From the NCBI GenBank assembly GCA_963924555.1, contig OZ004584.1, positions 1,611,001-1,675,000 of the forward strand: a stretch of 64,000 nt of DNA. Direction: 5' to 3'. The stretch's first letter is position 1. Each line of letters begins with the position of its first letter. The notes beneath the pieces were generated by a model that saw nothing but the letters and a program-made list of their open reading frames with translations, searched no databases and was not told the DNA's origin. This DNA is from Crambe crambe. Taxonomy: Eukaryota > Porifera > Demospongiae > Poecilosclerida > Crambeidae. This document shows, in pieces, positions 5,524-52,199 of this stretch. Both the position numbers and the translations under genes were made by a program.

Positions 5524-5869
5524 TTCCAGTTCCTGCATGATTACTATAAAGACAATTAAAATAGCTAGAGTGTGCATGACTTGAATCATTGGTAGCTATG
5601 TATTGCTCATTATTGTAGTGAATTCTTGTTCTTGCTGGATAAATCTTATCCATTAATTGTGTGCTAAATTTTTTGTTTCTGAATGCTAAATTAAATTTGT
5701 ATCACCAATAGCTATAATCTGTTTTTTCAGTTAGAATAATAGTGCGGTAATCAATCATCAGGAGGGATGGAAAGTGCCTCTCCATTTTATTAGCTATGAC
5801 ATTAGTAAATCAGTAATGTGCAAGTACACTCTTTGCTAATTAATAATACAAGCTACATATGTATCATGG

Positions 5870-6030
5870 GCAAGATTATTGTAAGACTTGTGATGAAGTT
5901 CCTATTTTGCTTGGATGTGTCATGCAGGACTACATAGCACTCTTTGGGATGGAGAAGAGTGTGATAATTACTCATTGCTACAGAAATAATCCTCCATTAT
6001 AGTTATTCTATAAGCAGAGGACCACTGACA
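5870..6030 (+). pseudogene. Decayed C-terminal exon of a related fibrinogen-like gene
   Basis: GATGAAGTTCC, CTCTTTGGGATGGAGAAGAG and TGCTACAGAAATAATCCTCC can be read as fragments of the family C-lobe (LWDGEECG, CCYRNNPP), with stops and gaps. Equivalent relics lie downstream of copies 3, 4 and 6, so a second gene probably belonged to the ancestral duplication unit. Confidence 0.5.
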
Positions 6031-6153: not shown

Positions 6154-6260
6154 ATGTCTAGTACAATTGGTTTGGAGGCTGCAGCAAATGCTGCAATAAG
6201 ACTTGGATACGAAGAGGGCTTGAAGGCCAACCAGCTGAAAGTAGTGCAATGTCACTTTTT
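6154..6260 (+). pseudogene. Short RecQ-like helicase N-terminal remnant
   Basis: The reading contains ANAAIRLGYEEGLKANQLKVV, which resembles the residues before the Gln motif of transposon-borne RecQ-like helicases (ALxxLGYxxLKxxQxEVV). No Walker A motif follows. A more degraded version sits at the matching place in block B (about 45420-45530). The similarity is short. Confidence 0.35.
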
Positions 6261-6400
6261 TTCTGAGATGGATATTTTCATTCCTTATATTACAGTCACA
6301 TCCACAACAGTACACAGGCATCATTGAATATTATCGTACGATAAAAAAACTATGACAACTGTGATGTCACTGGCTATATATAATACTGCTAGCTATATAT

Positions 6401-6430
6401 GATTTCTAGAGGGAGTTTATAAGCCATTAA
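6401..6430. other. Paralogous empty sites of the two large block-B transposons
   Basis: This locus reads GATTTCT at 6401-6407, a short AGAGGGAGTTTATAAGCCA stretch, then TTAA at 6427-6430. In block B the 6021-bp transposon sits between two GACTTCT copies and the 9420-bp transposon between two TTAA copies, with the same intervening bases. Block A therefore preserves the uninterrupted target. Confidence 0.85.
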
Positions 6431-45285: not shown

Positions 45286-45747
45286 AGCAGAGCACCACTG
45301 GCAACATTTTCGACAATAATTATTGAGGTAACACTGTGTTGACATAACTACTTAGGATAAGGAGTAGTCTACGTATATACACTTGGCGCCTTTTCCTATA
45401 AGTTCGCATGCTAAAATTGCACCTGCTGAAATGTCTAGTACAAGTGTATATGGAATATTCTGGCTGGCTCGCGAGACCATAGTTTGGAGGCTAATGAGAC
45501 TTGGATACGAAGAGGGCTTGAGGTTGTCTGAGATGGATGTTTTCATTCCTTTATATATATAACTATAATTACAGCCACATCCACAACAGTACACACGCAT
45601 TGAATATAAATCATAATGATAAAGAATAACTATGACAACTGTGATGTCACTGGCTAATTATAATACCGCTAGCTATATAATATTATATGACTTCTTATGG
45701 AAGCCGAGAAGTGCAATTTACATCATCCGCAAGCAAATTAATTTTGG

Positions 45748-45936
45748 CGCAAGTCTCCGCAAGTCTCCGCAAGTCTCCGCAAGGCTCCGCAAAGCTCCGC
45801 AAGGCTCCGCGAAGTCTCCGCAAGGCTCCGCAAAGTCTCCGCAAGTCTCCGCAAAGCTCCGCGAAGTCTCCGCAAGGCTCCGCAAGTATCCGCAAGTATC
45901 CGCAAGTCTCCGGAAGAGCCCGCAAGTCTCCGCAAG
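45748..45936 (+). repeat. Left subterminal array of GCAAGTCTCC (10-bp) units
   Basis: About 19 units, with 10- or 11-bp spacing. Common variants are GCAAGGCTCC and GCAAAGCTCC. Confidence 0.95.
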
Positions 45937-46059
45937 TTTTTCCGCCTTGCAAAATGATTTTTTTGAAAGTTGGTAAAGGATCTCCCGCGCGTGCGACCGA
46001 TAATGTACGCGCGCGCGTATGTGTGTAAGACAACTAACTATGGATGGTAAGTCTTATTT

Positions 46060-47814
46060 ATGGTTGAAGATAGCCGTGATTTGGATATCTTTCTAGACAT
46101 ACTTATAGAGTTATTCTATTCGTGGAGACCGTACAAGAGGTTATTAGCCATTTTGTACTTGAAGTATCACATGAAGAGAAGGTATCAAGTTATTAAACTG
46201 CTAGCTAACAGATTGTGTATTGACAATGACTGTTTGGTGTCTAGTTTGAGATGGCTGAAAAACCAGTTTAATCGTCTTGGGTTATCCAGGCGTTGGCCTG
46301 ATCCACCTGAACACCAAGTCAGGTCCATCATCAGGGTAAGGAACAATTACATGATCATAAACTGGCGTCTTTACATGTAGCTATGACTTAAAACTGTAGG
46401 TTGAATTGGCCTCATCTAACCAGCTTAGAGGCTATCGAGCCATGTGGCAGATTCTCAGACTCAAGTATCATCTCCTGGTCAGAAGGTAATTAAATTTCAC
46501 TTAAAGATGGAATGCTATTTCAACAATAACAGAGATACTGTGATGAAAATCATGAAAGAGGAAGATCCCTGTGGTTCCGAACGAAGGCGAAAAAAGACAC
46601 TAAAGAGAAGAATTTACAGAAATAAGGTACAAACAGTGTTAAAACTAGGAATAGCTATAGCTATTATCATAATATTATTATAGGGACCAAATTTTATCTG
46701 GCATATCGATGGATATGACAAAATGACCCCATTTGGCTTCACTCTTCATGGCTGTATTGATGGGTATGCAAATTTGTGTGCAAGGCAAATTATCATAATG
46801 TTCCTTCAGTTTTTCTAGGAAAATCATTTGGCTGAAGCTAGCCCCATCTAATAGTAATCCAAGAGTAATAGCTAGATATTACTTGGAAAATGTGGAGCAA
46901 GTGGGAGGTAACTGTTGCAGCATGCTAGCTAGCCAGTTTACGGTGTGCATCATATAGGATGTCCATCAGTTATAAGAGGCGATTATGGCACAGAAAATCC
47001 AACAATTGCAGCTATACAAATTGCCTTTCGTTTTTATCATACCGATGGGATGGCTAATGAAAAAAGCTTTATCTATGGACTATCCAAATCAAATATTGTA
47101 GGTGTTCAAAAAGTACATGAAACTATTTCATTTGAACTACTACTATAACCCATTTACAGAGAATCGAGGCATGGTGGTCTCAGCTTAGAAGGCACAAAAC
47201 ACACTGGTGGATTGATTTTTTTAAGGTATAAATTGTTGCTAAGATAATTGCTACCAATAATAAAATTTTCAGACCCTAGCCCACTGTGGAGACTTTGTTT
47301 CAACTAATGACTTTCACAGGTATATAATATATATATATATATATATATTATGTCAGAAATTATTATATTGCTGTTGTAATAGGAGTTGCCTGGCATATGT
47401 TGTACTTGTACCATTGAAAAAGGATCTAGCTGAATTTATTGAAACCTGGAATTCACACTTGATTCGTAAAAATCGCCTTTCAGAGTGTCCCAATGGAGTG
47501 CCGAATGAGCTATACGAGTTCCCATCCCTATATGGTTAGCTATAATTCAAATATCCTTTAACTTCCTTCTTTCCTAAACTTCAGGAACAGAAGATTTCTC
47601 TAAACCAATCAGTACAGATATCTGGCTTGATGCTATGATGACAGAAAGTGAACCACCAGCACCTTTTTATTCACCAATTTTTGAAGCATGGGCTGACACT
47701 GTGCTTCGAGTTGACTTTGCCATGGACCAACAGAGTATTAGTCAATCTTTTTGTTCATCATTGTACCATCATTTGGTTACTCATCCAGCACGGGATTTCA
47801 TTATCAACAGTTAA
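46060..47814 (+). CDS. DDE/integrase-type transposase, ten exons, open
   Basis: Exons inferred from GT-AG sites and phase: 46060-46335, 46400-46485, 46533-46626, 46684-46763, 46810-46907, 46958-47097, 47160-47225, 47273-47319, 47383-47534, 47585-47814; total 1269 nt, 422 residues, with no stop or frame conflict. The N-terminus resembles a helical DNA-binding region ([14 protein letters not shown]). The catalytic core reads WHIDGYDK (first Asp), [10 protein letters not shown] (second Asp) and [12 protein letters not shown] (Glu), close to the metazoan integrase core domain family (WHIDGNDKLKPFGF type). Role: cleavage and strand transfer at the transposon ends. The relation to IS3EU-like or Ginger-like transposases is a guess. 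Start 364 bp inside the left end, so its promoter probably lies in the inverted repeat. Confidence 0.85.
47321..47349. repeat. (TA)n microsatellite in the transposase intron
   Basis: About 12 TA units within the intron after exon 8. Confidence 0.9.
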
Positions 47815-47940
47815 CTACTATTAAATTTTTTGACAGAATGAAATTTTTTTGACTGAATGTGAATTGAAAGTGAATACAATTGAGTGAGTTTCTGGGTGAG
47901 CATGTCATTTGATAGCAAACAAGAAAAAAACCTGGACTAC

Positions 47941-50900
47941 TCATTCATGTGTCAACATTTCAAGTACCTATAATAACAACAAAAAAAGTCAACCAGGAGC
48001 AGTAGAGAGCACACATCAAAGCTAGTGATCTGCACACCCTCACTATTCAGTGCCCAGTTACCCACAATACACATACACATTCCCAGCCAGCCACAAGTGT
48101 GTAAACATGACCCCCTTACATCTGATGATTGTGCCCTGACACTGTGTCTCTTCAAGCAAGCTGAGATAATGTTGAAATAGTAGTCACAAGAAGGAGGGGG
48201 CACACCTAAAAAAGAATCGTATACATCACTGAACTTAGTCCGATCGGAGATCTCTTCTTGTAGGGAATCAACCTACAATGCCAGATCAAGAATCAGATCA
48301 TCAGTGAAAAACGTTGGATTGTAATTTAGAATGCATAGGGGCTATTATTTTAATACACTTTAAATCGATGTACATACCAGCTTGGGATCATCTCTCTCTT
48401 CATCATAAGCTTTAAGTCCAGAATAGGTTTCTAAAATAACCTGAAAGTACATGGATCTAAATATTTTGGGCATGACCACCCAACTTACAACACCAAAACA
48501 GTATACATCACTCCTATCAGAGATTTTTCCAGAACACACTTCAGAAGGGTAATAGCCCTCGGATCTAGATATGAAGTTGGCAGTAAATAGTGTCTGGCCA
48601 CTAGATACAGATGGTAATTCTACAGAAAAGCCGAAGTCACCCAATTTCGCTTTATAAGCCTCATCAAGAAGAATATTTGCACTGCAGCAATATATCAATA
48701 TCACATAACATGAAATTACAGTCTATAAAACGTACGATTTAATATCCTGGTGAATTAGTGGAGGGGTGGCTGTATGCAGGTACACAAGGCCTTTACAAGC
48801 ATCTACCAGGATAGATTTCCTCCTGTCCCACGAAAGCAACTGATCTCTTTCCTATTACACAAAAGGAAGTCAAAATCAATTCAGCTTACAAGTACTAGGT
48901 TGGCATTACATTATGAAGCTTCTCAAATAGGCTTCCATTCATCATAAACTCAAATATTAGTGCAGGTGGCTTGGAGCAAAACCCAAGCATCTGTAGCACA
49001 TTAGGATGGCGGAAACTGAAATATGAACACAGGATTATAAGCTGAACCTTTTAAAAACATCTCCTACCGATTCAAAGCTCCTACTTCTGTTTGAAGTAAC
49101 ATAGAGGAGCTACAACCAAGAGCATTCTTACCATCCTATAATAGAAGTTTACCGTCCTATAAGTTGTAACACTACAGATATACACATTCATTAGAATAAC
49201 CTGTGATAAGACCTTGATTGCCACACTGCCATAACGCAACACACCTTTATACACCGTACCATAGCCACCTCTACCAATCACTGTTGAACGACAGAAATTC
49301 CGTGTCGATTCACTAAGTTCTTGTGCAAAAAATTCCATACACTGATCTATAGTACATACGAAAAAGCATATGCTATATGTATATGCACAAGATAAAACTA
49401 GCAAACCAGCTTTAGGCCTTTTTGCAGGATGCCTTGATGCCCTAGGACAACCAGCCTCCCTAATGGTAGTTTGAGATAATGGACGCTTCCCTTTTCCCTT
49501 TCCTTTCTTTGAAAGAGCCTTATCCGAACTTCGCTCATCAACTGTTAGTAACATAAGCAATGCTAAATACTTAAGTGCCAAGTACTGTTTACTGATGATA
49601 GAATCAGTATCAGATTTTGAAGCAGGGCTGGAACAACTGCGATAACCAGAGGATGAATGGATAGGTGAAATTGGTGCCTATGTGCACAAATCAAAATGTG
49701 AAGGTGGGCCAATACAGAATCTGATAAGACTAACCGTAGATACAAAACCAATCCCAAATTGAAGTTTGCCTGGTCCCCTATGGTGCTGATGCATATACAA
49801 ACTCAATGACCAGTCCTTACTCTCCTTTATCATGGCCCCCCCAGGAGTAAATAAGGCAGTGGTATGCCCAAATGGGAGAGGAGAACAGTCGAGTGCATCA
49901 CAACCCGATGACAACAGATCTTTATAATTAATATCTCTATCCACTATAATTTCAATTGAAAAACCATCTTTAACATAATTTTTTTTCCTCTTCCTCATGG
50001 AAAAAAAAGTTACCTAGATAAATGCAATACAAGTCAAACATCTCGGGCAGTTACACATCAATCTGTATGCACTATATAAACCTTTACTTACAGGACATGA
50101 AGAACTTTCACCTATAATCTTAGGAGTCCTTTTCAATTTTTTCTGGATCTCATTAGCCCTTTTAAGTAGATCAGACGATTTAAGTAGATCAGACGAGGCT
50201 TCTGTGTGTGTGTGTGTTGAGAACAAAAATTCTCTCTTAGTCACACAAGCACAGATAGTCTGGTACAACTCCTATATTGCATAATTGGGACACTGATAGC
50301 ACCACCAGACTCTCTTCTCAGGTGAGAGTCTGTGCAAGATTTCTCTTACATAAAATTTACTGTACTATTTCTTGAAATACAGTTCATTCTAGTGCCTGAG
50401 ACTCCAATATCTCAAATAAAGCACATCACCCACTTACCTATATCCTTTTGAGGATGTGGCTCTTTTAACATATCTGCGATAAGTCCGTGCATCTCACTTG
50501 ATAGCGTCAATAAGCGTTCTTTTCTTGACCTCATTTATACTATTCAGCGAGCTCGAGACTAACTATAACTATTCAATAGGCTAACTATTCAATAGCTGCA
50601 TGCAAAGGTGAACTAACTGTAAGCTTATCACGTGCACACAATCCTACATGATGAACCCTTTACCTACCTACCCCGACCATGTTCCAGAAGGAGACATACT
50701 TTTATCTACTACTTACCCACATCACTTTCAGGATCATGCTTTTCTGGGTGTATGTTTGCAAACATCACTCTCTCTGCCTGTATATGTAGACCTCTGAATC
50801 AGTGCTCAAGAATGAGGCTACAACTTACTTCCTCTGCATTGATACTGAATTGCTCCATCACAAGACACTTTATTGCTTCTGGGTAGAGGATGGCAATTGT

Positions 50901-51416
50901 ATAGCCAAAAAGCTAACCACAAGCATGCTAGTAAAACTTGTTAATACAGCCTGTGCATAATTATACCTTCATGCTTTCGACACAAAAGTGATGGGTTAGC
51001 CTGTCATATAGAGCATATGTAGCTTTTGATGAGACACAAGTTATAAAATACGATTTGTTTGTCAGCTCATCTATTGTACATTCAATAAGCAATAACCTTA
51101 CACACCTTGATTAATCAGCTAGCTACATACTTTTTGTCTTGCAGGAACCCTGCCACCACTTCCTGTGGCTTTCCAAAGGAACCTGCATATATATTATGGG
51201 TTACATTATGTTACATTATGTGCAGGTGTACTGATACAACCTGGGAGGAGTATTGATGAGGTATCTCCTACTGCTACCTGAATCTTTGCTCCTTGCACTA
51301 ACCTTTCCATCAGCTATCTTCTTTAGGTGATCAATAAAAGAAGGCAGCCTAGAAAGAAGATCAGCTTCTGTTAATGTACTAAATTCAAGTGCTCTTTTCG
51401 AGTCAGTGGAACTCAT
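47941..51416 (-). CDS. Spliced protein kinase gene carried by the transposon
   Basis: Seventeen exons inferred, all GT-AG and in phase: 51303-51416, 51131-51182, 50967-51070, 50829-50912, 50717-50777, 50438-50473, 50092-50201, 49735-50013, 49407-49677, 49201-49346, 49068-49135, 48910-49015, 48736-48851, 48489-48681, 48378-48440, 48120-48272, 47941-47967; 1983 nt, 660 residues. Residues 1-380 match nothing I recognise; a Lys/Arg-rich stretch (KKGKGKGKRP) may be a nuclear signal. Residues about 385-655 are a protein kinase: GRGGYGTVYKG, VAIKVL (Lys), QTEVGAL (Glu), HQDIKSANILL, GDFGFS, SDVYCFGV, and a closing VLEML. It resembles tyrosine-kinase-like Ser/Thr kinases of the IRAK/receptor-like type. 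HRD is HQD, so activation-loop regulation may differ, but Lys, Asp, Asn and DFG are present. A start at 50534 would give a 542-residue form. Exon 2 is the least certain. Confidence 0.8.
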
Positions 51417-51538
51417 GTCGCTGTTCTTCTTCCTATGGCTAGAAAAAATTGAGAGAGCACGCTCATGCGTACCCGCCCGCGCCACAGCTGGCCGGCCGCC
51501 GTGCGCACACGGGGATCCTTTACCAACTTGCTTTTGCA

Positions 51539-51664
51539 CTTGCGGAGACTTGCGGAGACTTGCGGAGGCTTGCGGAGGATTGCGGAGGCTTGCGGAGGAA
51601 TGCGGAGACTTGCGGAGACTTGCGGAGACTTGCGGAGCCTTGCGGAGATTTGCGGAGACTTGCG
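51539..51664 (-). repeat. Right subterminal array of the 10-bp unit
   Basis: Twelve units of exactly 10 bp (CTTGCGGAGA type), the reverse complement of the left array. Confidence 0.96.
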
Positions 51665-52199
51665 CCGCATGCTAATTTGCTTGCGGATGATGTAATTGCA
51701 CTTCTCGGCTTCCATAGACTTCTAGAGGGAGTTTATAAGCCATTAAGGTGGCGGTAAACAGTTTGCACCAGAAAATTTGCGCTTTTAAAAAGATTATTAT
51801 AAGTAATGGGTGTACCTATATCCATGAAATTTGGTATCAGCATGTAGAGCAAAACTAGCTCTATCTACTCATCTAGAGATCATGTTTTACAAACAAGCCA
51901 CTGGAGATCTACAGCTAAAGTATAAATACTACCCAAAAGTTACTTCTTCCCAAATTGGAGGACATCTAGCAACCCTGAAACAGAACCACAGCCTTCTTCA
52001 CGTGACGTATGGAATAATTAGTATCTCTACACAACCAAAAAGTGAATTCTGTTACGTTACCGTATACGGTGTCAGCACACTATTCGTAAATCAGCATCAT
52101 TACTGTATCTTCAGGAAATACATCGTAACACTCATACTTCGTCAGTACTGATACTATTGTGTTCACCGTACTGATACCATACTGATACTATGGTACTTA

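What the first reader, a model, noticed from the sequence alone, without database searches (positions are those of the whole stretch)
45689..51723. A DNA transposon that carries an open, spliced protein kinase gene
Seen directly: inverted ends, 7-bp GACTTCT duplications and a matching single-copy empty site in the duplicated block delimit a 6021-bp unit. Its whole interior is two convergent genes, a DDE-type transposase and a gene whose last third is a kinase with P-loop, VAIK, HQDIKSAN and DFG. Both multi-exon models are open and phase-consistent. Inference: the kinase is a resident component, perhaps regulating transposase, host defence or the cell cycle, or a captured host kinase. I know of no described eukaryotic transposon family defined by transposase plus TKL-type kinase.
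Basis: partly seen in the sequence, partly recalled or inferred. Interest (0 to 1): 0.92.

Follow-up and report, generated by a model that had tools for sequence, protein, structure and literature searches.

The report
Transposon family with resident kinase gene
An animal genome (probably a sponge) holds a family of cut-and-paste jumping genes that carry, besides their own transposase, an intact-looking protein kinase gene, kept through so much divergence that it probably does something useful for the transposon.

Summary
Window 45696-51716 is a 6,021-bp transposon (TATGG..CCATA ends, ~180-bp imperfect inverted repeats, 7-bp TSD, a related empty site) with two convergent spliced genes: an rva_4 (DDE-type) transposase and a kinase gene. 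It is a family: four more near-full-length copies at 94-99% identity, one with both genes open. Four divergent families in the same genome also pair a multi-exon transposase with the kinase gene. Of 22 distinct end pairs over 4.5 kb, 20 hold the kinase gene. Between families, kinase synonymous sites are saturated while catalytic motifs are kept. The protein has an RTC4-like region (sub-threshold), a predicted ubiquitin-like beta-grasp domain and a TKL-type kinase. Ends and TSDs fit the IS3EU superfamily; its tree was not tested. A precedent narrows the novelty: fungal IS3EU elements carry an alpha-kinase opposite the transposase. New here: the TKL type with its architecture, an animal host, and other rva_4 transposases in this genome with a HECT-ligase match in the same convergent place (22 of 52 strong matches; chance 0.3). 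The second gene looks like a swappable slot for protein-modifying enzymes. Its target is unknown.

The parts
45689..45695 (.). left target-site duplication GACTTCT
45696..45876 (+). left terminal inverted repeat with an array of ~10-bp CCGCAAGTCT units (likely transposase-binding repeats, inferred)
   Evidence: 87% match to the right end in reverse complement; repeats; unit counts
46060..47814 (+). transposase gene, 10 exons 46060-46335, 46400-46485, 46533-46626, 46684-46763, 46810-46907, 46958-47097, 47160-47225, 47273-47319, 47383-47534, 47585-47811 + stop; 422 aa; rva_4 integrase core
47941..51416 (-). kinase gene, 17 exons (51278-51416, 51127-51182, 50967-51065, 50829-50912, 50717-50777, 50092-50201, 49735-50013, 49593-49677, 49407-49541, 49201-49346, 49068-49135, 48910-49015, 48736-48851, 48489-48681, 48378-48440, 48120-48272, 47944-47967), stop 47941-47943; 639 aa
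   Evidence: stop read
50717..51065 (-). exons of the RTC4-like N-terminal region
   Evidence: PF14474 below its cut-off in the F1 piece; matched by 4 of 4 aligned relatives, best E 2.7e-4
49735..50013 (-). single exon coding a predicted ubiquitin-like beta-grasp domain
   Evidence: AlphaFold pLDDT 91 on a 5-row alignment; structure matches
47944..49346 (-). exons of the TKL-type protein kinase domain (GRGGYGTV, VAIK, HQDIKSAN, DFG)
   Evidence: Pkinase E 7.6e-34; motifs
50438..50537 (-). possible alternative first exon (MRSRKERL..) of the kinase gene
   Evidence: open, phase-compatible, found in other copies; no RNA evidence
51539..51716 (-). right terminal inverted repeat with subterminal repeat array
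51717..51723 (.). right target-site duplication GACTTCT
6259..6430 (+). related unoccupied site in the duplicated block, single GATTTCT

Best explanation
The unit is a recently active cut-and-paste transposon that fits the IS3EU superfamily by ends and TSD, with two resident genes. SHOWN by sequence: ends, TSD, empty site, near-identical dispersed copies, two convergent spliced gene models, and the same pairing in four divergent families (F3, F4, F6, F7) in one genome. INFERRED: the transposase binds the terminal and 10-bp subterminal repeats, cuts the element out and reinserts it with a 6-7 bp duplication. The second protein (RTC4-like region, ubiquitin-like domain, TKL kinase) is an accessory enzyme kept by purifying selection. 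The mechanism I think most likely (about 45%) is that it phosphorylates a host protein that limits the element (silencing, DNA-damage or innate-signalling factor), so raising transposition or survival; phosphorylation of the transposase itself is next (about 30%). The reason is that elements of this type carry different protein-modifying enzymes (HECT ligase, TKL kinase; alpha-kinase in fungi) opposite the transposase.
For: Copies C10:4863128 (99%), C20:1500027 (99%), C5:8328132 (98%), C3:3738347 (94%) span nearly the whole unit. C10:4863128 has both genes open, 417/422 and 638/639 aa identical, 3/2317 non-coding differences. Kinase gene in 20 of 22 distinct end pairs over 4.5 kb; transposase hit in 18, 17 of those with the kinase gene (with C11:5404795 added and one nested pair counted once; hits picked by hand). 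Divergent families: C6:8328500 (F3), C21:3483200 (F4) and C5:1103500 (F6) have the kinase gene without stops in the spliced model and the transposase opposite; C9:1773967 (F7) likewise, with stops in both. Kinase domain between F1, F3, F4, F6: pS 0.73-0.86, pN 0.23-0.34; G-loop, lysine, HQDIKSAN and DFG kept in all four. Within the family, window against C3:3738347: kinase gene 6 synonymous/401 sites, 5 non-synonymous/1411, non-coding 23/2279 (Fisher p 0.019 and 0.030). Both trees join F1 with F3 apart from F4, F6, F7. HECT match convergent beside 22 of 52 strong rva_4 matches. Alpha-kinase opposite the transposase in fungal IS3EU (PMC12730594).
Against: No RNA from this genome. The within-family selection test rests on 11 changes; for the transposase it shows nothing (3/257 against 10/970). 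Several copies have a broken gene, and the transposase models of the F3 and F6 loci read contain stops, so those copies may be dead. In F4 (C21) the aligner put N-terminal exons outside the element's left end, so the RTC4-like region was not found in F4. F9 has transposase and kinase on one strand and may be two elements; it also sits in different places in the two trees. Two end pairs lack the kinase: C6:4570198 (transposase relic) and C3:5115514 (neither gene found); L011 and L012, read only in part, showed transposase and no kinase. No profile similarity between the ubiquitin-like domain and the region before HECT (hhalign probability 0.2%), so a common origin of the two second genes is not shown. 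30 of 52 strong rva_4 matches had no HECT match nearby. Nothing here tests the kinase's substrate.
Confidence: 0.82

Rival explanations
1. The kinase is a host gene captured once and carried as a neutral passenger.
For: Its domain belongs to a wide TKL group; the best solved relatives are plant-type, RIPK-named and IRAK kinases. The genome has many kinase matches, three high-scoring ones not tied to an end pair.
Against: It persists in families at 50-63% kinase identity with saturated synonymous sites and intact motifs, with the ubiquitin-like domain in F1, F3, F4, F6 and F9 and partly in F7; a passenger would decay.
Confidence: 0.06
2. The kinase phosphorylates the transposase to time transposition (for example to cell cycle or damage) rather than acting on host proteins.
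For: Both genes are co-inherited and give broadly similar trees; an element-encoded regulator needs no host target.
Against: Elements with rva_4 transposases can have a HECT ligase, and fungal IS3EU an alpha-kinase (PMC12730594), so no particular modification of the transposase is indispensable across the group.
Confidence: 0.3
3. The kinase protein acts in host immune or cell-death signalling and keeps cells that carry the element alive.
For: Relatives IRAK and RIPK-like kinases work in innate signalling (matches; function recalled).
Against: No Death domain was listed; no expression or phenotype data.
Confidence: 0.15
4. The long gene is really two genes: an RTC4-like protein (51416-50717) and a shorter kinase starting at 50537.
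For: The exon at 50438-50537 begins with ATG, is in phase with the next exon and is found in other copies.
Against: One continuous model without stops spans both parts in F3, and the RTC4-like region precedes the kinase in F1, F3 and F6.
Confidence: 0.2

Closest known systems
[quoted passage not shown]
   Same: TA..TA termini and TSDs usually 6 bp in the paper; here TATGG..CCATA, 6 bp in three copies (L002, L005, L062), 7 in the window copy; integrase-type DDE transposase
   Different: The parts read mention no TKL kinase; whether the transposase falls inside that superfamily's tree was not tested
Fungal TET+ IS3EU elements with alpha-kinase (PMC12730594, passages read)
   Same: TAYGG..CCRTA ends, 6-bp TSD, a kinase gene in opposite orientation to the transposase
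   Different: Alpha-kinase, not a TKL protein kinase; extra TET/JBP gene between the two; fungi
HECT-bearing rva_4 elements of the same genome, e.g. L060 (C9:3771500)
   Same: TATGG..CCATA ends, 6-bp TSD ATCAAT (by eye), rva_4 transposase, convergent second gene
   Different: Single-exon transposase; the two HECT-type rows sampled stand apart in the tree (100/100); HECT ligase in place of the kinase; region before HECT not alignable to the ubiquitin-like domain
IRAK/Pelle and plant receptor-like kinases
   Same: Among the best solved relatives of the kinase domain
   Different: Own clade apart from 12 sampled plant, Pelle-like and other rows (100/100); no Death domain listed

Membership tests
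IS3EU | TA..TA termini (TAYGG..CCRTA in fungi) | tested here: met
   TATGG..CCATA; definition from PMC10045372 and PMC12730594
IS3EU | TSD usually 6 bp | tested here: met
   6 bp in L002, L005 and L062; 7 bp in the window copy; none seen in L004
IS3EU | IS3-like DDE transposase | tested here: inconclusive
   rva_4 integrase core E 1.2e-28; HTH_21 (IS3-associated, recalled) E 0.0007 but below its cut-off; affinity to IS3 not measured
IS3EU | transposase falls inside the IS3EU/GingerRoot clade | not tested
   No Repbase rows; only clustering with public rva_4 proteins was seen
TKL-type protein kinase | catalytic motifs and best match to TKL kinases | tested here: met
   that IRAK and plant RLK belong to TKL is recalled
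IRAK family | N-terminal Death domain | tested here: not met
   Pfam scans of F1, F3 and F6 proteins, and of F9 from the middle domain on, listed no Death domain; sequence level only
RTC4-like domain (PF14474) | score over Pfam's gathering cut-off | tested here: not met
   20.8 against 23.7 bits for the F1 piece; 4 of 4 relatives match at E <= 1, best 2.7e-4
ubiquitin-like beta-grasp fold | strand/helix order and structural match | tested here: met

The most novel reading that the evidence does not exclude
IS3EU-type transposons have an accessory slot, convergent with the transposase, that is filled in different lineages by unrelated protein-modifying enzymes (alpha-kinase in fungi, HECT ubiquitin ligase and TKL kinase in this animal). 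These are interchangeable anti-host or licensing effectors, so that a eukaryotic DNA transposon behaves like a virus with swappable effector genes.
Probability: 0.45. Interest if true: 0.85.

Novelty: new variant of a known kind. Interest (0 to 1): 0.72.

Why it matters
Eukaryotic DNA transposons are usually thought to need little beyond a transposase. Here is an animal lineage that has kept a signalling enzyme through the divergence of several families, beside another type in the same genome with a ubiquitin ligase. If these enzymes act on host control of transposons, they give a direct handle on how animal cells restrain DNA transposons and how the elements answer. It also suggests that some kinase and HECT genes counted as family expansions in such genomes may be transposon genes (inference).

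Tried and rejected
Homology between the ubiquitin-like domain and the region before HECT: a lead from memory of fish HECT proteins; hhalign probability 0.2%, and the model of the HECT-side region was useless (pLDDT 40). Not claimed.

The 5-row profile of the ubiquitin-like domain against PDB sequences gave one match, Bem1 2kfk, at E 0.41: not significant. Pfam gave nothing usable. The RTC4-like profile gave no PDB match up to E 10.

A public protein matching the N-terminal and middle region: none at E up to 10 among 2243 candidates.

Alpha-kinase elements in this genome: 7 Pfam matches at 3 places (C20 481-485 kb, C9 3.66 Mb, C17 1.45 Mb); none lies beside a listed rva_4 match (compared by eye). 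Not followed.

First-pass dN/dS was inflated by misaligned frames and was replaced, whose KINdom rows are in the wrong frame and were dropped.

Literature: ten searches. No title or abstract start listed showed an animal transposon with a TKL kinase or with HECT. This covers the PMC open-licence library only and, for long hit lists, only the rows shown; Repbase Reports and most subscription papers are not in it. Papers: PMC10045372 (parts 1-3 of 5 read), PMC12730594 and PMC8195603 (passages); all others seen as listings only.

Full report
Anatomy. The unit lies at 45696-51716, with TATGG..CCATA ends, imperfect ~180-bp inverted repeats built largely of 10-bp units, and GACTTCT on both sides. 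The joined flanks align across the junction to window 6259-6430, where the site is unoccupied and GATTTCT stands once. So the insertion is real and precise.

Genes. The transposase (46060-47814, +) has 10 exons and 422 aa. Pfam gives rva_4 at 1.2e-28 and, below its cut-off, HTH_21. A public protein from a 1,304-bp contig, P0121, aligns to the spliced model over 349 residues without a gap, 59% identical. The second gene (51416-47941, -) has 17 exons and 639 aa. It has an RTC4-like region (sub-threshold in F1; matched by 4 of 4 aligned relatives), one exon coding a predicted ubiquitin-like beta-grasp domain (pLDDT 91; moderate structure matches, many of them ubiquitin-like), and a protein kinase domain with its motifs. 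A shorter form starting at 50537 is possible. The genes converge, with 126 bases between their stop codons. Exon borders were chosen by hand; there is no RNA.

Copies. A search of the genome (143 Mb, unnamed) found four more near-full-length copies at 94-99% and others with an insert or broken. C10:4863128 has both genes open and only 3 of 2317 non-coding sites differ, which suggests recent movement. The end sequence occurs 117 times against 0 for the control; 100 places were listed. They give 23 end pairs over 4.5 kb, one of them a nested double count, so 22. By overlay of search hits picked by hand, 19 of these hold the kinase or ubiquitin-like exon; reading C11:5404795 adds one, 20 of 22. 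Eighteen hold a transposase hit, 17 of those with the kinase gene. The two without are C6:4570198, with a transposase relic, and C3:5115514, with neither gene found (not read). Ten shorter pairs (0.4-3.2 kb) look like non-autonomous derivatives. Genome searches give lower bounds.

Divergent families. With a spliced aligner I read other loci. C6:8328500, C21:3483200, C17:2552000 and C5:1103500 each have the kinase gene on one strand and a related transposase on the other, converging; so do C9:1773967 and C11:5404795. Stops in the models: kinase 0 in C6, C21 and C5, 3 in C17, 2 in C9, 5 in C11; transposase 3 in C6, 1 in C21 (none), 7 in C5, 0 in C17, 2 in C9, 1 in C11. So several of these copies may be dead. 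In C21 the modelled N-terminal exons lie outside the element's left end and are not believed. C20:1693500 has both genes on one strand, and C16:4506500 is decayed. L066, L060 and L061 gave only background kinase scores (89-117) against 1234 for F3. L011 and L012, read only in part, showed transposase and no kinase.

Selection. Between F1, F3, F4 and F6, kinase pS is 0.73-0.86 and pN 0.23-0.34, with G-loop, lysine, HQDIKSAN and DFG kept in all four. Within the family the signal is weaker: 6 synonymous changes in 401 sites, 5 non-synonymous in 1411, and 23 in 2279 non-coding sites against C3:3738347 (p 0.019 and 0.030). For the transposase the same test shows nothing (3/257 against 10/970).

Relatedness. 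The kinases of seven transposon loci and four public proteins (P0001, P0005, P0007, P0008) form a clade at 100/100 against 12 plant, Pelle-like and other rows chosen from the 120 listed. Other kinase matches listed in this genome reach at most 38%, except three fragments not tied to an end pair (64%, 47%, 43%); 140 of 689 candidates were scored. Host kinases could not be fetched for the tree. The transposase tree (six loci, two HECT-type, 16 of 120 listed public rows) groups F1 with F3 (and P0121), and F4 with F6 and F7, as the kinase tree broadly does; F9 differs. The nearest named transposases are from Dysidea avara, a sponge, so the host is probably a sponge; this is inference.

A second type in the same genome. 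Of 52 rva_4 matches of 200 bits or more, 22 have a HECT match within 3 kb, all 22 convergent, against 0.28 expected. These HECT matches are weak to moderate one by one (E about 1e-8 to 7e-4). The example L060 has TATGG..CCATA ends, 303-bp inverted repeats at 94%, and a 6-bp duplication. So the same layout carries a ubiquitin ligase in one type and a kinase in the other. Thirty of the 52 showed no HECT match; some may hold one too diverged or too split to be found. What the public animal rva_4 genes have beside them was not seen.

What is known. IS3EU elements have TA..TA ends and usually 6-bp TSDs (PMC10045372). In fungal TET+ IS3EU families a TET/JBP gene lies between the transposase and an alpha-kinase gene, these two in opposite orientations (PMC12730594). 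A kinase in this superfamily is therefore not wholly new. The TKL kinase with a ubiquitin-like domain, the animal host, and the HECT type were not seen in the listings of ten searches.

Function. Best guess: an accessory enzyme acting on a host protein that limits the element; next, on the transposase. Neither is tested.

Noticed in passing
L060 (C9:3771500-3778500), L061 (C5:5789500-5794800) and 22 places: rva_4 transposases with a convergent HECT-ligase match; L060 has 303-bp inverted repeats and a 6-bp TSD.
   Followed up: partly
C6:4041142-4041567, C11:4189796-4190262, C12:5129387-5129821, C3:9503617-9504051 and six other short pairs: Short elements of 0.4-3.2 kb between the same ends, probably non-autonomous derivatives.
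   Followed up: no
L059 (C3:903500-911000), 5578-6027, + strand: An RTC4-like stretch of another family inside or beside a degraded copy, on the strand opposite to the copy's kinase gene.
   Followed up: partly
C18:2462749, C9:976630, C18:2181548, C12:3081700, C10:4842758: These copies are about 0.6-1.1 kb longer than the window copy, with the match broken inside the element: apparent inserts.
   Followed up: no
C18:4110175, C9:3378495, C12:3072373: Kinase fragments 64%, 47% and 43% identical that lie in no listed end pair: relics or possible host relatives.
   Followed up: no
P0007, P0008: Public kinases of the same clade whose N-terminal parts look Ig-like by eye; possible host relatives of the transposon kinase.
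   Followed up: no
window 6195-6430 and 45389-52023: Diverged duplicated block, one copy with the transposon and one without.
   Followed up: partly
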